A stretch of DNA of 11,877 nucleotides from Pelagophyceae sp. CCMP2097 (lineage: Eukaryota; Sar; Pelagophyceae): positions 33,180 through 45,056 of the forward strand of contig MU657480.1 of assembly GCA_026770575.1 (NCBI GenBank), in the 5' to 3' direction. Shown in pieces: positions 1,948-11,706 of the stretch. Each line of letters begins with the position of its first letter. Positions within the stretch are counted from its first letter, which is position 1. Position numbers and translations under genes: made by a program. The notes beneath the pieces are model-generated. The model was not told where the DNA came from, made no database searches, and saw only the letters and a list, made by a program, of their open reading frames with translations.

Positions 1948-4096
1948 ATGCAGCTCCTCGTGAGAGCGGACCAGGTGCGCATTGCTGCCTCTGCGTCGCT
2001 CCCGACCCCTGGCCGTCACGCCGCCTCCACAGACGTTTGTCGTCGACGTCGCGGCCGATGCGACGCTCGAAGACTTTGCCGCACGATCCTCGCAGCGTCC
2101 GCCGCTTTCGGAGGGTCCCGCCGTGGGGAGGCGGGGCCACGGCCGTCGGACGACGGTGCGCAGGCGATGGTCGCGGCGCGGACGCACGACGACGACGCGG
2201 CGCTGACGTTGAACGGCGCGGCGCTGAGCGGGCTGCGCCTCTCCGACGTCGCCGACCTCGTCGACGGCTGCACGATCACCGTCGCGCCGAGGTCCGTCGC
2301 GGGCGACGGGGGCCGAAATTTCGCCCGCCGTCTCGCCGGCGCCCCGCACATACGACGGGTCTTTCTCGGTCTCGCTCCTTCGCACATCGTCGCCTTCTCC
2401 AGGCTCCGCGGCGGGGCGCTGCTGGGCAAGCCGGTCAAGGGCCGTTCCAAGGGCCTGGACTTTGAGGAGAAGTTCATGCGGCAGCGCGAATACGATGCCC
2501 AAAACCAAAAGTACCAAGTGGTGAGTCGGCCGTCCGCTCGTTCCTTTGGGTGGTTCGTGGGGTGGTGCGGCGGCCCCGGATCGTCTGCGGCGGGACGGCG
2601 CTTTAGGCGCGCAACGAGCTCAAGGCGCGGATGGAGCAGGAGAAGGTCAACTCTCGGATGAACCGCCTGAAGATCCAAAACCAATGGCGGAAGATCATGA
2701 GGTTGGCCAAGGTGGAGTCTTTGAGAAAGGGCATCGAGGTGTTGTCGCAGAACCACGAGCGCGACGTGGACCGCAAGGACGCTATTATTCAAATGCTGGA
2801 CCGCGATCTGGAAGAGGCCGAGGACCAGTTCCGCACGGCCCTCCGGGCGCACCTGCAGAACATGGACGAGCTCGTGGACTTACAAGACGGCCGGTTGCTG
2901 ACATCGGAGCAGGAGTTCGAGTCTGAATTGAAGACTCTTGAACAAGAATTCGCCGCTGAGCGCGAGGCGATTTTGAAGCAGCACGCGGCCGAAACGACGG
3001 AGCTGCAGGACGTCATGGCCGCCGTGGATTCCGAGGAGCAGGAGCGCGAGGCCGAGGCCAAGCAGGAGCACGAAGGGTTGCGCGAGGAGATCCGCAACAA
3101 GAACCTTGAAGAAATCAACATGCTCCGCATCGGCTTAGACTCGCAGATCGAGGACCTGGAGCAACATTTTGAGACCGCGCATCTAAATTACCTGCAGACG
3201 ACGGACCAGCGGACGCACGACTTTAAATTTTACACCAAGAAGGACCAAGAGCTTTCGAAAGAGATCGAGACGAAGATTCGCAAGATCGAGCGCCTCCAGG
3301 CCTCGCTGCAGCACTGGCGCACCAAGCTGCAGCAGAACATGCGCGAGTGTGCCCAGCGCAACGCCTTGCTCGCCGACGAAAAGAACAAAATCCAAGGTGC
3401 GTGAGGCATGAGGGTTTTAATGCGTGCCACTCGGCCCTTTAAAAGCGCCTCACCTCCGCTCTAGGCCACTTCCAGCAGCTGAAGAGCCGCATGGACCGCT
3501 TCCGCGGCGCGCAGGGCCGGCGGCTCGAGGAGCTGACGCAGCACGCGCACGCCTGCAAAAGTACCATCGCAGGCCGAATCGCGCTCGCCGAGCGCATCTT
3601 GGGCCTCGCCGAGCTCGCTCGGAAGATGGAGACGGAGCAGGAGAAGATTATTCCGTTCGAGACCTTTGAGGCGCCGGCGGTATCGGCGCCCTCGCCGCCG
3701 AATTCGGCCGACGACGCGTCCGTCACAAAGGCCAAGCCGGCCGAGGAGGCGGGCCGCTATCGCACGGCGTCTCTGCGGGCGGACGGGACGGACGTGCCCG
3801 AGTGGTGCCATTTGGACAACTTTTTACGCAAGTACAACAAAGTCCTTTTGGACAAGCTCGCCGTCGAAAAGGAGCGCGAGCGTCTAGAGCGCGAGAACGC
3901 CGACCTCCAGGCTTTGCTGAAGCAGTTCTTCGACGGCGTCACGGTCAACGACGCCGTCATGCAAGGGCCCAACCCGTTGCTCGTCATCAACGGCAACTTA
4001 AACATCCAGCGCCCGGCCCAGGTCCGGCAAGACCTCACCGTCGTCGACGGCAACCACATGGTCGCCACGAGCCGCGTCAACACGTCGTACTTCTAA
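1948..4096 (+). CDS. Ubiquitin-like domain (LRGG end) fused to DRC2/CCDC65
   Basis: DRC2 is a coiled-coil subunit of the nexin-dynein regulatory complex, which links outer doublets and regulates dynein in motile cilia. My model has six exons: 1948-1974, 2033-2122, 2164-2291, 2403-2520, 2607-3396 and 3465-4096 (1785 nt, 594 aa). All introns are GT-AG, of 58, 41, 111, 86 and 68 nt. Residues 1-86 form a ubiquitin-like fold: MQLLVRA and TFVVDVA strands, ATLEDF helix start, LTLNG turn, LSDVADL, TITV, ending RLRGG. Residues 87 onward match DRC2: a basic start, QNQWRKIM, long coiled coils, KNLEEINMLR, EKIIPFETF, LDNFLRKYNKV and NPLLVIN. The DRC2 part (508 aa) compares with 484 in human CCDC65. The start is the first Met of the ubiquitin fold, in context GCGGCGATGC. 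DRC2 identity is strong. The fusion depends on the first three introns, which are predicted; the 41-nt intron enlarges the loop after the helix by ~10 residues. The alternative is a separate Ubl gene read through into DRC2. Confidence 0.72.
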
Positions 4097-4999: not shown

Positions 5000-5550
5000 G
5001 CCCGTGGCCGCGGCGCGATTACGACGGTCAAAACTTTCGCGAGTCGCTGAACTTTGGGCGACGTTTTGAGGCTGACCTGAAGCAAGCTTTTGCCCGTCGT
5101 CAGCCTTCGACGAGTCGACCGAGCAGCCATGGCCCACGCCGTGCCGGTCCCCGACGTCTCGGCGTTTCTGCGTCAGTCGGCAGCGTCTCGCCGGGTCGAA
5201 GCCGAGAGCGGCCTCGTCGATTGACAGACGCCCTTTGCAAAAGTCGTCCGTCGTCGGCGCGTCGGCGCGTTGACGCACGGGCCTATGTTGGAGGGCGGCC
5301 CCGAGACCGGCGGGGCTCCCCGTTGCAGCGGCCGCGAAAGTCGCGCGGAGGGGTCGACGCGGTTGAAGTCTGCGGCCTCGCACTGTTGAAGTCTGCGACC
5401 GGATCTGGCCTCGCCGGACGCGCGGCGCTAGGCACGGCGGGCTTTTCCGAGGCGGCCGACGCCGTGGACCTCAAGTTCGGAGGTGCGTTTCGGGCGAGAC
5501 GGCCCCCCGTGGCCGCGGTCGCTCGGCGAGTCGGCGGGCTAGGCTCTACC
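5000..5550. promoter_or_regulatory. Divergent intergenic region, possible 5' exons of CBL
   Basis: This stretch lies between two divergent genes and should contain both promoters; no core promoter motif was recognised. It also has exon-like pieces. A good intron candidate at 5483-5542 (GTGCGT...GGCTAG, 60 nt) would join an open frame ending near 5482 to the lyase frame just before the Met at 5551. A 31-codon frame, MAHAVPVPDVSAFLRQ at its start, runs 5129-5224 with a strong start context (AGCCATGG). A 15-base direct repeat, GTTGAAGTCTGCGRC, lies at about 5362 and 5384. The upstream material may encode a targeting peptide for the lyase, but I could not connect it to an in-frame Met. Confidence 0.35.
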
Positions 5551-6843
5551 ATGTGGGCGGCGACGCGCGCCGTCGGCGCCCTGGCGCTGGAGACGCGGCT
5601 GGTGCAGTCGTACGCGCCGCAGAAGGATCCCTACGGCTCGTCGTGCATGCCGCTGTACCAGACGGCGACGTAACGCGCCGGCGTCTCGGACAATCGGGTG
5701 GGCGGGCCGTTCCAACGTCAAAGGCTAGGTTCGCGTCGGCGTCGGCGGACGACTTTGGGGACTACGACTACACGCGGTCTGGCAACCCTACGCGGACGGC
5801 TCTGGAGAGCGCCATCGCGGACGTCGAGGGATGCGCGCGCGCCATCACCTTCTCCACCGGCATGGCCGCCCTCTCGGCGGTGACGCGCCTGGCCAAGTCG
5901 GGCGACGAGATCTTACTCAGCGACGACTCGTACGGCGGCACGTACAGGCTCCTCAGCAAGATTTGCGCGAACATGGGCATTACCACGAGATACGTGGCCA
6001 TGGACGGCCCCGAGGGACCCGCGCGCCTCGAGGCGGCGATCCAGCCTCACACTTCGCTGGTCATGGTCGAGTCTCCTACGAACCCGATGCAGCGCGTCTG
6101 CGACGTCCGCGGTCTGGCGAAGGTCTGCCGCGCTCGCGGCGTAATCCTCGAGGTGGACAACACTTTGATGTCGCCGCTGCTGCAAAAGCCGCTGGAGCTG
6201 GGGGCGCACGTGGTTGTGCACTCTCTGACCAAGTTCTTCGCGGGGCACAGTGACACGATGGCCGGCGCCGTTTGCTGCGACGACCCCGAATTGGCCAAAC
6301 GCCTCGCTTTTACCGTCAACGCAGAGGGCACCGCCCTCGCGCCCTTTGACTGCTGGTTGGTCCTGCGTGGCATGAAGACCATGTCGCTGCGCGTGAACGC
6401 CGCCATGCGCAACACGGAGCGCGTCGCAGCGTTCCTGCACGCGCACGCAAAGGTCACGAAATGCTACTACGCCACGCTGCCTTCGCACCCGGGCAAGGAG
6501 CTCCACGCCTCGCAGGCAAGCGGGGGTGGCTGCGTCGTCTGCTTTACTACGGGGTCCGTGGCGTTTTCGAAACACATCGTCACGAACACAAAGCTGTTCC
6601 GAATCACCGTCTCCTTTGGATCAGTCAACTCGTTGATCTCATGCCCCTGCGACATGTCCCACGCCTCGATTCCGGCCGAGGTCCGCGCCGCGCGCGAGTT
6701 CCCGGAGGACATCATCCGCGTAAGTCAAGCCTCGCCGCCGCTTGCACCGACCGACCGACACTGCGCAGGTTTGCGTCGGCGTCGAGCACATCGACGACCT
6801 CCTCACCGACCTCGACCAGGCGCTCAACTCGTACAAGGCGTGA
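5551..6843 (+). CDS. Cystathionine beta-lyase (PLP enzyme, plant type)
   Basis: This enzyme splits cystathionine into homocysteine, pyruvate and ammonia in methionine synthesis. Three exons (5551-5669, 5729-6719, 6769-6843) give 394 aa; the introns are 59 nt (GTAACG...CTAG) and 49 nt (GTAAGT...GCAG). Conserved blocks of the Cys/Met-metabolism PLP family appear in order: MPLYQTATF rejoined across intron 1, YDYTRSGNPTR (54 and 56 contact the cofactor phosphate in the family), FSTGMAALSA, ESPTNP, EVDNT (Asp183, pyridine nitrogen), and HSLTKFFAGHSD with Lys208 as the Schiff-base lysine. The C-terminal ITVSFGSVNSLISCPC and MSHASIP blocks, and RVCVG rejoined across intron 2, resemble plant cystathionine beta-lyase more than gamma-synthase. 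The Met at 5551 has good context (ACCATGTGG) and precedes the conserved ETRL. No transit peptide is present from this start, so the enzyme is either cytosolic or has upstream exons (see 5000-5550). Confidence 0.9.
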
Positions 6844-7265
6844 GCCCGAAGAAAGCCGAGGACGCCCCAGCCCGCCCGCCGCACACATGGCGCGCTGCCG
6901 TCGGTCCAAGCCCGCATCGACAGCCGACCCTCGCGGGCGGCGTCCGAATTCGGAACTAACCACTGGCGAGAACGGAGGCACTGGCACCCTGGAGCGTCTC
7001 GGCCTCGGAGGCCCATCTCCCAATCGGATGCGAGGCTGTTTCTTAGCGGTGTTACTTCTTTGGCAGTCTGCGTCGTCCGCAGCGCCGGGAGGTGGCTCGC
7101 CGGGCCGGTGCGAAGGGCGCCGCCGGGGCCGGCGGCGCGGGGCGGCGTGGGGACCGTCGGGCCGACGTGGTGCGGGCGGCGCCGACGCCCGCAAAACGAC
7201 GCGGTACGGGCGGCGCGTCGTATGCGGGCGTCGGCGCGCCGCATGGTCGAGGCGCCTGCGCGCGC
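6844..7265. other. Intergenic space between convergent CBL and eIF2-beta
   Basis: This stretch should hold the 3' ends of two facing genes. Positions 7070-7265 are very GC-rich and low in complexity, with many CGGC/GCCG triplets. The only protein-like feature is a short hydrophobic start on the plus strand at 7028 (next entry). No terminator or poly(A) signal was recognised. Confidence 0.45.
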
Positions 7266-7366
7266 TCACTTGCGGAGAGCCCGCCTGTCGGCGCGCGTCT
7301 GGGCGTGGAAACCCGCGCGGATGGGCGCAACGGAGCGCGAGGACCCGCAGTCTTGGCAGTGGTTGA
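7028..7366 (+). CDS. Possible short secreted-type ORF with signal peptide (doubtful)
   Basis: From the ATG at 7028 the frame reads MRGCFLAVLLLWQSASSAAP, which has the shape of a classical signal peptide: a basic start, a leucine-rich core, then a small-residue cleavage site near Ala18-Ala19. The rest of the 112-aa frame is Arg/Gly/Ala-rich, resembles translated GC-rich DNA, and runs into the antisense of the eIF2-beta coding end. If real it would be either a very short gene or a first exon whose partners lie antisense to eIF2-beta, which is hard to accommodate. It could equally be chance in a 3' untranslated region. Confidence 0.15.
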   Translation: MRGCFLAVLLLWQSASSAAPGGGSPGRCEGRRRGRRRGAAWGPSGRRGAGGADARKTTRYGRRVVCGRRRAAWSRRLRALTCGEPACRRASGRGNPRGWAQRSARTRSLGSG

Positions 7367-8070
7367 AGTGCAGGCGCGAGACGGAGTCGCGCGTGAGCGT
7401 CGTGTTCGGCGACCGGCACATCTGGCAGGTGACGTACTCGACGATGTACTTGCGCAGGAGCGACTCGATGTACTTCGGCACGTACTTGCCGCGGATCACC
7501 AAGCGCTGCGTGCCGTCAATCGAACCTTCTGTGCCGAGCTCGGCCATGAAGAACTGGAAGACGTGCTCCGGGTTGCGGCGCATCATCTTGCAGATTTCCT
7601 GGAAATTGACCCACAACGTCTTCTTGGTCCCGACGCGCATCAGTTGCGGCGGCTTCATCGTGTGCCGGCGCTTCTCGGAGAGCTCCGGGTTGTTCTCCTG
7701 CAGGATCCCGACCACGCGGTCCAGCAGCTCCTGGTACGTGTAATTGGCGTACTCGCGACCGCCCGACCCCACCGCGGATGCCTAAGCGGGCATATCGACG
7801 CCGCAGCGAGCCCCAAAAGGCAATCGCACCTCGGCGCCGTCGGCGAGCTTCTCCTCCTCGTCGACCTTCTTCTTCTTCTTCTTCTTCTTGACTGCGCGGG
7901 GCGACGTCTCGGTGACAGTCTTCCGGCCAGGTGCACAAACTTGCGTCTTGAGACGCACCTTTGGAAAGATCGAACATGGCGGCCATGTCTTCCTCTTCGT
8001 CGGCCTCGCCGTCCACCGGCGTCGACGTCTCCTCGGGCGCCATCACCACAGTCTCGTCGTCGTCGGCCAT
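7266..8070 (-). CDS. Translation initiation factor eIF2 subunit beta
   Basis: eIF2-beta is part of the cytosolic eIF2 GTPase complex that brings initiator tRNA to the 40S ribosome. Three minus-strand exons (8070-7959, 7891-7830, 7781-7266) separated by introns of 67 and 48 nt give 229 aa. Domains: an acidic start (MADDDE) with MFDLSK at 32-37, then Val and eight consecutive lysines at 39-46; the core domain begins at about 70 with YTYQELLDRV, followed by MKPPQLMRVGTKKT, VNFQEICKMM, FFMAELGTEGSIDG and RKYIVEYVTC. A C4 zinc ribbon uses Cys177, Cys180, Cys200 and Cys203. The Met at 8070 has a strong context (AAGATGG) and matches the family start, although the frame is open further upstream. The animal and yeast proteins are longer (about 285-333 aa) and carry three lysine blocks that bind eIF5 and eIF2B-epsilon; this one has a single block and a short linker. 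Confidence 0.93.
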
Positions 8071-8427: not shown

Positions 8428-9330
8428 TCATTCTTGATGCGCGTGCACGTCGGCGCCGGCGTCGGCTACGTGGCGCGCCTGTGATTTCGGACGTGGGGAC
8501 GGAACTACACGGACGCAACCCTCCGGCCAGCGCACCTGCGGCGCCGGCGGGAACGTTGGTCTCGCGTCGTGCCTCGGCCGGGCGCCGCAGAGGTGGAGTA
8601 GGATCCTAGGCGCGGGGCGTCAGCGCCGGGAGCGTCGTGGCCGTCGGAGCACGTTGGCACTCACGCGGGCGTCTGGCAGATGCGCTTCACCCGCCAGCCC
8701 CGGGCCTCGGCGACGACGGGGTAGACGTATTCGCAGTAGTAGTAGGCGTGTCCGACGGCGATGCCGACGAGGTCGGCGGCGGCGGGGTTGCCGAGGAGCA
8801 AGGAAAAGGCGAGGAGGACCCAGGGGAGGTACGGCGCCGTAAACGGGAACAGCTGCAAAAACGACATTCGTACGTGCTCGTTTCGGCGGCCCCAGACGTA
8901 GACCATCATAAATGCGAGCGAGGAACCGAGGAAGTGGTCCTGCAGGAACGGCGCGAGAAGTACAATTAGGGCAGCGCCGAACGCCAGCATCCAGACAAAG
9001 TCGGCCGTTCTGCCTCTGAACTCGCCCTCTTCCAAAAGCCGGCAGTAGCGGACGAGGAAGTACATGTGGAAGACGAAGTCGAGTGAGAAGAGACCGAAGA
9101 AAAAGAAGTTTGTCACGAGGCGCCAAGCCTCGCCTTTGCGGAAGATTAATGAAAAGTCGTAGTACAAAGAAAACGGCGAGACGAGGTCCAGCGCGCCTAC
9201 GCCGGCCGTCCGCGCCGGGCCGCTTCCGGCCGGGTTACTGACAGGCGGCCGTTGTGAGGAACGACGCGGTGAGGTAGAGTCTCGAGACCGGGGGAATCTC
9301 CGTGTACCACGTCCAAGGATCGGCGACCAT
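8428..9330 (-). CDS. Derlin (Derlin-2/3-like ER protein)
   Basis: Derlins are inactive rhomboid proteins of the ER membrane that help move misfolded proteins to the cytosol for ER-associated degradation. In diatoms, cryptophytes and other complex-plastid algae, Derlin relatives also serve protein import across the periplastid membrane. Proposed minus-strand exons are 9330-9243, 9196-8665 and 8605-8428 (introns 46 and 59 nt; 265 aa). Family marks: EIPPVSRLYLTASFLTTAAC at the start, LVSPFSLYY, the WR pair at 54-55 in WRLVTNFFFFG, RYCRLLEEGEFRGRTADF, VYVWGRRNEHVRM, LPWVLLAFSLLLGN, and the GxxxG helix (Gly174, Gly178) followed by His. Several hydrophobic segments are consistent with six membrane helices. 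Without the last intron the protein would stop at 8661 (207 aa, ...CQTPA). I prefer the spliced form because that stop lies inside a perfect GTGAGT donor and the next exon continues TPAILLHL, as in the family, with a weak WPEG motif where the p97-binding tail normally sits. Confidence 0.85.
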
Positions 9331-9606
9331 ATTAGCACGCTCCTGCGGGGACGGCGCAGAGGGGCGGCGGCCAAGGACCCTTTCAGGGCGACGACAGCGC
9401 CCGCGCTGTCCGCGTCGATGGCCGGAAATTCAACTTTGATCACGGAAGGTTTTAGCGAGTTTAAGAAGTGTCATGAATTTTGAAGATTCGAAGCAGTCAC
9501 GGTACTATTTCGAAAGCAATCCCTTTTGGGCCAGCTATGACGGGCAAAACGTCTTAAAATTACTCACAGCTCAAATCGAATTCTGAGAACTCAAAACTCG
9601 ATTCCG
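9331..9606. other. Upstream region of Derlin up to the transposon
   Basis: This is the likely Derlin promoter and leader. Composition switches from GC-rich to clearly AT-rich at about 9430 and stays so through the transposon edge. Just outside the element, the 15-mer GAGAACTCAAAACTC is present once (9585-9599) and again inside the element end (9607-9621). No gene is supported. Confidence 0.4.
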
Positions 9607-9832
9607 GAGAACTCAAAACTCAAACTGAGAACTCAGAATTCGTTTCAGATAACTCGCGCTGAATGTTCAGAAAAAAGGGCATCAAATTTCCTTACCGAGG
9701 ATGCGATTTAATCCTTCCGGCCGTTAGCGCACGCCCCGGTCGTTCAGCGCCGCGCGCGCGGGCGCGCGTGCCTGCCTGGCCGGACCGAGGCGCCGCCTCT
9801 AGTCGTCCCGGTGGGGCGCCTCGGTCGGCGCC
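9607..9832 (+). repeat. Left terminal inverted repeat
   Basis: The outer part is AT-rich with GAGAACTCAAAACTCAAACT, and the inner part is GC-rich with alternating CG (about 9746-9770). It ends at GGTCGGCGCC, after which the two ends diverge. It is nearly identical to the right end in opposite orientation. Confidence 0.9.
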
Positions 9833-10679: not shown

Positions 10680-11336
10680 TTAGGCGGACTCGTCCGAGTC
10701 TTCGTCTTCCGAGTCGTCCGAGTCGCCCGAGTCGTCCGAGTCCGAGTCCGGAGGATTCTGGATGAGGTACTTGGTAACCCGTCGCAGCTCGATGTACTCC
10801 GACTCGAGTGTCGCAAACGGCGCGCGGCCCTCCATGCGCCGCTTCCTCGCTTTGCGCTGCGCTCGCGAATGCAGCGGGTCTCGTTGCCACGGCGACAAGG
10901 CCTCGGTCCCATCGGCAGTTCTGTGGTACCGCTCGAGGAACGCGTCGACGGCGGCCACTTCCTCGTCCGACACCGCGTGCCAGTGCGACTGCCCTTGCTG
11001 GTTGCCCGCGCCGTTCAAGAGGAGGTCGAGCGGGCGGAACGTACCGCGTGGAAATTTTGGGTTGCTCGTCGTGCGTTCCTTTCGTCGCAGCTGCTGCGCG
11101 CGGAAGTGCTCACCGATGCGTTCCTCGAACACTGGCAGGAAGACCTTGTGGAGGCACCACAGATCCAGCGCGTCTTTGTTGGGGCCGCCGCGGAGGTCGC
11201 GCGCGAGAGCGTTGTGCCGGGAACCGCCGAATGCGCGCGCGAGAGTGCCGCCAAGGGAACGAGCGCGTGGTGACGCGGAGGGCGCCGCCAATGCCCCGAT
11301 GAGGGAACCGCCGAGGGTCCCACCAAGGGCATGCAC
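10680..11336 (-). pseudogene. Truncated integrase-core transposase C-terminus
   Basis: The 218-aa minus-strand frame starts with low-complexity Gly/Ala/Arg sequence (1-50). It then shows DLWCLHKVFLPVFEERIGEH at about 59-78 and a RTTSNPKFPRGTFRPLDLLL block. This order (LHxVFLP, then a basic R-T segment, then P-x-x-L) matches the C-terminal end of the integrase-core (rve-like DDE) transposases found in many eukaryotic genomes. A charged region follows (RAQRKARKRRM), then an acidic Ser/Asp/Glu tail to the TAA at 10680-10682. The N-terminal zinc and DDE catalytic portions are absent, and the right terminus starts only ~145 bases upstream. I therefore call it a remnant. Family assignment is from motif memory and moderate. 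Confidence 0.55.
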
Positions 11337-11481
11337 GCGAGGAGCCGCCGAGCTAGCCTCTAAAAGTGGTGCCGAGATCCTGCCGACGGCGCGCCTCTAA
11401 AGGATCCACCGGGTCCGCCGAGGCCAGATGAGGTTCCCGCTAAGGAAGCCTGCCCAAGGCACGGGCAGCTCCATTGCCAAG

Positions 11482-11706
11482 GGCGCCGACCGAGGCGCCC
11501 CACCGGGACGACTAGAGGCGGCGCCTCGGTCCGGCCAGGCAGGCACGCGCGCCCGCGCGCGCGGCGCTGAACGACCGGGGCGTGCGCTAACGGCCGGAAA
11601 GATTAAATCGCATCCTCGGTAAGGAAATTTGATGCCTTTTTTCTGAACATTCAGCGCGAGTTATCTGAAACGAATTCTGAGTTCTCAGTTTGAGTTTTGA
11701 GTTCTC
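11482..11706 (-). repeat. Right terminal inverted repeat
   Basis: This is the reverse-complement counterpart of 9607-9832. The inner edge is GGCGCCGACC and the outer edge GAGTTCTC. It lacks the extra 15-mer copy that lies just outside the left end. Confidence 0.9.

What the first reader, a model, noticed from the sequence alone, without database searches (positions are those of the whole stretch)
1948..2520. Ubiquitin-like domain with LRGG end fused in frame to the ciliary protein DRC2
Seen: three short GT-AG introns assemble an 86-residue ubiquitin-like fold starting MQLLVRA and ending RLRGG, then a continuous frame into a clear DRC2. The six-exon total is divisible by three, and the splice at 2291/2403 makes exactly the RLRGG end. 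Known: ubiquitin-ribosomal and FUBI-S30 fusions are cut after Gly-Gly by deubiquitinases. Inference: DRC2 may be made as a cleavable fusion, coupling release of a modifier to ciliary protein synthesis or acting as a folding chaperone, leaving DRC2 with N-terminal Ala. I know of no described Ubl-DRC2 fusion.
Basis: partly seen in the sequence, partly recalled or inferred. Interest (0 to 1): 0.88.

Follow-up and report, generated by a model that had tools for sequence, protein, structure and literature searches.

The report
Ubiquitin-like domain fused to ciliary DRC2
In an ocean alga, and in many of its relatives, a core scaffold protein of the beating cilium is made with a ubiquitin-like domain at its front, joined so that cutting after the Gly-Gly would leave the normal start of the ciliary protein.

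Summary
The window (Pelagophyceae sp. [quoted passage not shown] The public protein is reproduced exactly when intron 2 is a GC-AG intron (2081-2163), so the domain has 72 residues, not 86, and the junction is Gly72|Ala73. Residues 1-72 of the AlphaFold model match ubiquitin and FUBI.

The fusion is not unique. Of 113 DRC2 homologues with a readable start, 49 carry a full N-terminal domain. It ends in GG in 40, GS in 6 and GA in 3, followed by Ala in 47. Oomycete-type proteins (33) keep only the last strand plus GG. Of 28 unfused ones, 23 have their start Met exactly at the junction. An apparently independent fusion (P0218, near-canonical ubiquitin) nests among unfused proteins.

Most likely DRC2 is made as a cleavable ubiquitin-type precursor, like Ub-eS31 and FUBI-eS30. 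Cleavage is inferred, not shown. Fast divergence, loss of Gly76 in some clades and the oomycete remnants leave room for a retained domain or a relic. Eight open-access paper searches found no report of the fusion.

The parts
1948..1974 (+). exon 1: start of the ubiquitin-like domain (MQLLVRADQ)
   Evidence: most relatives of the same clade start MQ[LIV]
   Evidence: exact match of the spliced translation to P0001; 59.9 versus 47.2 bits against 10 relatives
2164..2291 (+). exon 3: rest of the helix and the later strands of the ubiquitin fold
2403..2520 (+). exon 4: LRGG junction and the first residues of DRC2 (ALLGKPVKGRSK...)
2410..2415 (+). Gly-Gly codons of the junction (Gly71-Gly72 of P0001); predicted cut after 2415, leaving Ala73 (2416-2418)
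   Evidence: sequence; junction counts; DRC2 chain 8tek_B begins Met then ALLGK aligned to Ala73
2607..3396 (+). exon 5: DRC2 coiled coil with most of Pfam NYD-SP28
3465..4096 (+). exon 6: DRC2 C-terminal part with NYD-SP28_assoc, stop codon

Best explanation
This is a single gene for a ubiquitin-type precursor of DRC2. The ribosome makes a 72-residue ubiquitin-fold domain followed directly by DRC2. A deubiquitinase-type protease cuts after the Gly-Gly and releases DRC2 with N-terminal Ala-Leu-Leu-Gly-Lys. That is the start that unfused DRC2s such as Met-Ala-Leu-Leu-Gly-Lys would get once the initiator Met is removed. The initiator Met now lies in the ubiquitin part, so the gene depends on the cut to make the normal start. 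The ubiquitin part has drifted far from ubiquitin, keeping its fold and its end, and is probably a processing tag or cis-folding aid rather than a source of working modifier. Shown here: the gene structure, the predicted fold, the junction and its conservation, and the distribution. Inferred: the cleavage, the protease and the role of the free N-terminus.

For: Junction: of 49 fused homologues, the end is GG in 40, GS in 6 and GA in 3. In 35 representatives under 60% identical in this domain, Gly75 is kept in 35 of 35, more than any other column, and Gly76 in 30 of 35.

Placement: residue +1 is Ala in 47 of 49 fused. Of 28 unfused proteins, 23 have Met at -1 and 5 have it one residue later. 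Chain 8tek_B, residue 2 onward (ALLGK), aligns to Ala73.

No other start: P0001 has Met only at 1, 27, 93, 116 and 125 of its first 130 residues.

Rate: in 28 pairs (8 proteins chosen from the pelagophyte clade) the domain without its last two residues is 34% identical (median) and the first 290 residues of DRC2 are 81%, as expected for a discarded part.

Recurrence: P0218 carries near-canonical ubiquitin (64 of 74) ending LRGG before AKIKKAMKGG, is 90% identical to unfused P0223 (MAKIKKAMKGG), and nests with it.

One mRNA: P0050 (MMETSP transcript) and P0079 (EukProt), both labelled complete ORFs, hold both parts in one ORF.
Against: No proteome, RNA or cleavage data for this strain. In 9 of 49 fused proteins the last residue is Ser or Ala, which should block or slow cutting. 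Oomycete-type DRC2s (33) keep strand 5 plus GG with no ubiquitin fold left in their models, so an N-terminal extension seems tolerated there. The residue after Met in the 28 unfused proteins is Ala in only 12 (Pro 6, Val 4, Arg 3, Lys 2, Thr 1), so a free Ala is not a universal need. I44 and V70 of ubiquitin are T and A in this copy and the place of L8 is a gap. An older Aureococcus model, P0005, starts downstream at MRQREYD without the domain, although two other Aureococcus records (P0002, P0008) have it. The pair P0072 (fused) and P0094 (unfused) has 90% identical DRC2, so the domain is dispensable.
Confidence: 0.7

Rival explanations
1. The domain is not cut off. It stays on DRC2 as a ubiquitin-fold cap at the tip of the nexin link, next to the neighbouring doublet, where it adds a binding surface.
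For: 9 of 49 fused proteins lack Gly76 (GS or GA). The N-terminus of DRC2 reaches the distal lobe that touches the neighbouring B-tubule (PMC6678824, passages), DRC2 positions lysine-rich flexible regions towards the neighbouring doublet (PMC10266980, passages), and its extended N-terminus contacts DRC8 (PMC10504270, passages). A ubiquitin-domain radial-spoke protein is known (CMUB116, cited in PMC4415241, passages). Giardia Ub-eS31 is described as uncut (PMC8122580, passages).
Against: Gly75 is kept in 35 of 35 and Gly76 in 30 of 35 representatives; a retained domain has no obvious need for them. The rest of the domain evolves far faster than DRC2 (34% versus 81% identity). There is no linker, and 23 of 28 unfused starts coincide with the junction.
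Confidence: 0.2
2. It is an evolutionary relic without function. Ubiquitin was inserted in frame by chance, was tolerated because it is cut off, and is now decaying. GG is kept only because the gene has no other start for DRC2. This overlaps with the best explanation (both have the cut) and differs in whether the domain does anything before it is removed.
For: Fast divergence, patchy presence (8 to 9 changes on the two trees), truncated oomycete-type remnants, and a fused and an unfused close pair.
Against: The fold is still predicted with good confidence in this very divergent copy, and the fusion persists in pelagophytes, brown algae, Tribonema, Chrysoparadoxa and several unnamed lineages.
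Confidence: 0.35
3. Gene-model or assembly artefact: ubiquitin-like exons and DRC2 are separate genes joined by annotation.
For: No RNA data for this strain were available. One listed relative, P0010, does look chimeric. The Aureococcus model P0005 lacks the domain.
Against: 49 homologues from several sources, genomes, transcript sets and metagenomes, show the domain end directly before the DRC2 start. There is no Met in the DRC2 frame between the junction and residue 93. P0050 and P0079 come from transcript-type sources.
Confidence: 0.03

Closest known systems
FUBI-eS30 (FAU) precursor
   Same: A divergent N-terminal ubiquitin-fold domain ending in Gly-Gly, directly followed by a carrier protein. 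The FUBI chain 8bs3_B has the highest TMt among the 50 listed Foldseek hits (0.81). FUBI-eS30 processing depends on USP36 (PMC8354635, title and abstract start seen in a listing).
   Different: The carrier is a ciliary scaffold protein, not a ribosomal protein. In this genome the one eS30 found sits behind a canonical ubiquitin, so the DRC2 domain is not a moved FUBI as far as seen. Cleavage is untested.
Ub-eS31 and Ub-eL40 precursors
   Same: Same layout and the same predicted cut after Gly76; a minor cis-acting chaperone role of ubiquitin was reported in yeast (PMC8122580, passages).
   Different: There the ubiquitin is canonical and feeds the ubiquitin pool (recalled). Here it is about 29% identical to ubiquitin (hhalign) and has no Lys.
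Ubiquitin fusions of algae: Ub-actin, Ub-F-actin capping protein, Ub-NiSOD, Ub-HMG box and others (PMC6332867, abstract, section 4 and passages)
   Same: Ubiquitin placed in front of cytoskeletal or other proteins in single-celled algae; Ub-NiSOD is patchily distributed and occurs in the pelagophyte Aureococcus.
   Different: DRC2 is not among the partners listed in section 4 (some are hypothetical proteins); the main text has no hit for dynein or flagell.
CMUB116, radial-spoke protein with IQ motif and ubiquitin domain
   Same: An axonemal protein with a ubiquitin domain (PMC4415241, passages).
   Different: A different axonemal complex; described there as opisthokont-specific. Whether its domain ends in a cleavable GG was not checked.
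Canonical DRC2 (CCDC65, FAP250)
   Same: Pfam NYD-SP28 and NYD-SP28_assoc; aligns to six solved DRC2 chains.
   Different: 7ju4_2 and 8tek_B start at the residue that here follows Gly-Gly. No ubiquitin stretch was reported in the six solved chains; 9y6s_8B has about 75 residues in front, but only its DRC2 stretch matched a ubiquitin-DRC2 query.

Membership tests
DRC2 (CCDC65/FAP250) | NYD-SP28 and NYD-SP28_assoc domains over the curated cut-offs | tested here: met
   68.4 bits (cut-off 22.1) and 36.8 bits (cut-off 27)
DRC2 (CCDC65/FAP250) | Sequence relation to DRC2 chains of solved axonemes | tested here: met
   7ju4_2 1e-118, 8tek_B 7.8e-83, 8j07_2 7.2e-71; DRC1 is much weaker at 1.1e-20
DRC2 (CCDC65/FAP250) | Localisation in the nexin-dynein regulatory complex | not testable with these tools
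   needs axoneme proteomics
Ubiquitin-type fusion precursor (Ub-eS31, Ub-eL40, FUBI-eS30) | N-terminal ubiquitin fold | tested here: met
Ubiquitin-type fusion precursor (Ub-eS31, Ub-eL40, FUBI-eS30) | Gly-Gly at the junction, followed directly by the carrier's own start | tested here: met
   RLRGG-ALLGK in the window; 8tek_B starts Met then ALLGK
Ubiquitin-type fusion precursor (Ub-eS31, Ub-eL40, FUBI-eS30) | Cut in the cell after Gly-Gly | not testable with these tools
   no protein data; 9 of 49 fused relatives lack Gly76
Canonical ubiquitin | 76 residues, near-identical sequence, seven Lys (recalled) | tested here: not met
   72 residues, no Lys, 22-31% identity to the ubiquitin and ISG15-type chains in the 50 rows
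Retained ubiquitin-like domain protein (IQUB/CMUB116-like) | Domain stays on the mature protein | not testable with these tools
   indirect signs point both ways: GG kept in 40 of 49, changed in 9 of 49

The most novel reading that the evidence does not exclude
DRC2 has been captured by ubiquitin more than once in eukaryotes: once early in stramenopiles, once in the P0218 lineage and perhaps again in the P0072 lineage. Each time ubiquitin replaced exactly the initiator Met, because assembly of the nexin link needs a precisely made N-terminus (or profits from ubiquitin as a cis-folding aid) at the DRC2 tip facing the next doublet. In clades that then lost Gly76, the ubiquitin fold stays on the axoneme as a new part of the inter-doublet contact.
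Probability: 0.3. Interest if true: 0.85.

Novelty: new variant of a known kind. Interest (0 to 1): 0.72.

Why it matters
The best-known ubiquitin fusions are those of ribosomal proteins, and the review PMC8122580 calls the selection of such fusions a mystery (passages seen). A core ciliary scaffold protein that carries the same kind of fusion across many algae and relatives, apparently captured more than once at the same residue, gives a second, independent case against which the chaperone, dosage and relic explanations can be tested. It also makes a definite prediction about the N-terminus of DRC2, which faces the neighbouring doublet. The natural GG, GS, GA, truncated and unfused forms are a ready-made set of variants.

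Tried and rejected
Tried without result. Pfam on the 86-aa and full-length window protein found no ubiquitin. The PDB sequence search with the 86-aa domain gave only chance PDZ and protease matches, E 0.06 or worse. Only the profile, fold and family-wide tests revealed the ubiquitin relation. Eight paper searches aimed at the fusion gave no report of it; two gave no paper at all, two gave capped listings (20 of 62 papers, 10 of 52), and the library is open-access only. Of the papers listed I opened passages or sections of nine only (PMC6332867, PMC11354881, PMC10266980, PMC10504270, PMC8122580, PMC4415241, PMC5795050, PMC6678824 by find or section; PMC8354635 only as a listing line). sought the DRC2 N-terminus and a Ub-SKP1 fusion (none).

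Considered and rejected. (1) Chance: 49 homologues share the layout. (2) Moved FUBI: the one eS30 found in this genome is behind a canonical ubiquitin. (3) A second, unfused DRC2 in this genome: one DRC2 locus was found, at C296; the only other match is at 9e-6 on C403 (not followed up). (4) The GT-AG 86-aa reading, which scores worse; it stays possible as an alternative splice form. (5) Using P0010 as evidence: its start is of the MAKIKK type but the rest is pelagophyte-like, so it is probably chimeric. (6) A ubiquitin domain in the roughly 75-residue extension of PDB chain 9y6s_8B: P0072, which carries near-canonical ubiquitin, matched only its DRC2 stretch.

Rows dropped before counts. One search examined 135 proteins: 5 polyubiquitins were left out and 17 had no readable start, leaving 113. 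P0131, which reads as a GG fusion, is among the 17. P0070 (45 residues, oomycete type) was counted as fused and moved to remnant afterwards, which turns 41 GG into 40. Of the 35 remnants in that call, P0012 and P0030 are probably cut-off fused proteins and P0087 is merely glycine-rich; 32 plus P0070 make the 33 oomycete-type rows, assigned by name, tree or likeness. The tree left out 20 near-copies; that used 50 of the earlier rows and 53 others. In one search the distance from junction to LGK is fixed by my own definition and is not evidence. In the green-alga search 80 of 119 new proteins had no readable start by my pattern.

Full report
WHAT IS THERE. The finding lies in a 66.2 Mb genome (G000:C296:33180-45056). 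The best protein match, P0001 (M885DRAFT_541035, Pelagophyceae sp. CCMP2097), is reproduced letter for letter by splicing the window, so the window is that organism. The gene has six exons. The public protein differs in intron 2: exon 2 ends at 2080 and the intron 2081-2163 has a GC donor. Both keep the frame. I therefore take the domain as 72 residues, with the junction Gly72|Ala73 at 2415/2416.

IS IT DRC2? Yes: NYD-SP28 and NYD-SP28_assoc are over their cut-offs, and DRC2 chains of solved axonemes match at 1e-118 (7ju4_2) and weaker. The genome shows one DRC2 locus.

HOW WIDE IS IT? I took 135 proteins from two searches, each of which lists only its best 120, removed 5 polyubiquitins, and could read the start of 113. 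After moving P0070 to the remnants, 49 have a whole N-terminal domain: 40 end in GG, 6 in GS, 3 in GA. Named carriers include Aureococcus, Chrysophaeum, Undaria (read from the code Undpi1), Ectocarpus, Chrysoparadoxa and Tribonema. A EukProt entry labelled INCI (I recall this as Incisomonas, not checked) has GS. Many rows are unnamed metagenome proteins, placed only by the tree. Residue +1 is Ala in 47 of 49. Thirty-three oomycete-type proteins (Phytophthora, Pythium, Saprolegnia, Achlya, Aphanomyces and others) keep only a strand-5-like stretch plus GG, for example FHLSLKLRGG-AQLGK. A fused, degenerate form (P0060) is their sister in both trees, which fits erosion; missed upstream exons are not excluded. 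Twenty-eight are unfused; in 23 the start Met sits directly before the junction residue and in 5 one residue later. The residue after Met is Ala in 12 of 28, Pro in 6, Val in 4, Arg in 3, Lys in 2 and Thr in 1. Chain 8tek_B (I recall Tetrahymena) has ALLGK from residue 2 aligned to Ala73, and Chlamydomonas DRC2, which starts MVKAGKKVKG, aligns with the same spacing. So the fusion point coincides with the native start.

CONSERVATION. In 35 fused representatives under 60% identical in the domain, Gly75 is the most conserved column (35 of 35), with Gly47 33 of 35, Gly76 30 of 35 (Ala 3, Ser 2), Arg72 28 of 35 and mostly a hydrophobic residue at 73. The rest is looser. For 8 proteins chosen from the pelagophyte clade the domain, less its last two residues, is 34% identical (median of 28 pairs, 24-49%) while the first 290 residues of DRC2 are 81% (72-91%). 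The window's copy has no Lys and has T and A where ubiquitin has I44 and V70. It is unlikely to act as ubiquitin.

ORIGINS. On the 93-row tree the label fused-GG needs 9 changes, and starred branches force 7. Much of this can be loss. One case looks like a separate gain. A third search started from Chlamydomonas DRC2 listed 120 of 677 hits, of which one, P0218, shows PF00240. Its ubiquitin is 64 of 74 identical to canonical ubiquitin, ends LRGG, and runs straight into AKIKKAMKGGSKV, while 25 of the 119 new proteins of that search start MAKIKK, 22 of them in the same clade. Its DRC2 part is 90% identical to unfused P0223 and pairs with it at 99 support. P0072 (75% ubiquitin) and unfused P0094, also 90% identical in DRC2, may be another recent gain or a loss. 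Caution: P0218 is a metagenome protein (cluster of 3 members) and its organism is unknown. Fusions outside the listed hits were not looked for.

HOW IT PROBABLY WORKS. The layout is that of a cleavable ubiquitin-type precursor. Shown: predicted fold, junction, placement, and no start Met between the junction and residue 93. Inferred: cutting after Gly72, removal of the tag, DRC2 with N-terminal Ala. [quoted passage not shown] the extended N-terminus of DRC2 interacts with DRC8 (PMC10504270). A fixed ubiquitin fold there would be a large change, which is why cutting is the simpler reading for GG forms and retention is a serious reading for GS and GA forms.

AGAINST. No expression or protein data for this strain. 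Nine of 49 lack Gly76. Oomycete-type proteins tolerate a GG extension without the fold. The domain is absent in several lineages, and an Aureococcus model (P0005) starts downstream of it. The contact patch used by many deubiquitinases (recalled) is not kept in this copy, so a dedicated protease may be needed, as USP36 is reported for FUBI-eS30 (PMC8354635, title and abstract start).

KNOWN OR NEW? Ubiquitin fusions to ribosomal proteins, actin, capping protein, NiSOD, HMG and others in algae are in print (PMC6332867: abstract, section 4 and passages). That paper's main text has no hit for dynein or flagell. Eight paper searches gave no report of Ub-DRC2; they cover open-access papers only. Public protein records already contain the fused sequences; the names shown are mostly hypothetical protein or DRC2, and one metagenome record (P0072) is named ubiquitin. 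I rate it a new variant of a known kind.

Noticed in passing
L003:1501-1971 and 1972-2541 (G000:C230:72407 onward, +): Canonical ubiquitin (PF00240 1.7e-30) in one uninterrupted ORF with Skp1_POZ (5.1e-17), the Skp1 dimerisation domain in a following open frame (2.1e-29): a ubiquitin-SKP1 fusion. It holds the only PF01466 match found in this genome. One paper search for it found nothing.
   Followed up: partly
P0218 (metagenome protein): Near-canonical ubiquitin fused to DRC2 of a clade whose 22 other members in the tree are unfused; looks like an independent fusion at the same residue.
   Followed up: partly
L010 (G000:C176:59800-62000, - strand): Ubiquitin-eS30 fusion with canonical ubiquitin split by introns; L001 holds ubiquitin followed by GKKRKKKTYTKPKKV, which looks like ubiquitin-eS31.
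   Followed up: partly
P0072 and P0094: Two metagenome DRC2s, 90% identical, one with a 75%-ubiquitin domain and one starting MAQLGK: a recent gain or loss.
   Followed up: partly
window 9607-9832 and 11482-11706: Inverted repeats of 161 and 72 nt, 99-100% complementary, around a 1.6 kb core with an open frame at 10680-11396 (-) without a Pfam match: probably a terminal-inverted-repeat mobile element.
   Followed up: partly
window 5367-6959 (+), 7266-7781 (-), 8661-9470 (-): Neighbouring genes: Cys/Met metabolism PLP enzyme (2e-113), eIF2-beta/eIF5 family (1.4e-37), Der1-like family (1.3e-54).
   Followed up: no
window about 880-1500: Repeated G- and C-rich units (AAGGGGGGTCCGGGGGGTC-like) upstream of the gene, seen by eye.
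   Followed up: no
P0010: Protein with a MAKIKK-type start (after LRLRGG) and a pelagophyte-like remainder; probably a chimeric contig.
   Followed up: partly
PDB chain 9y6s_8B: A solved DRC2 with about 75 residues in front of the conserved part; no ubiquitin stretch was reported there, nature unknown.
   Followed up: partly
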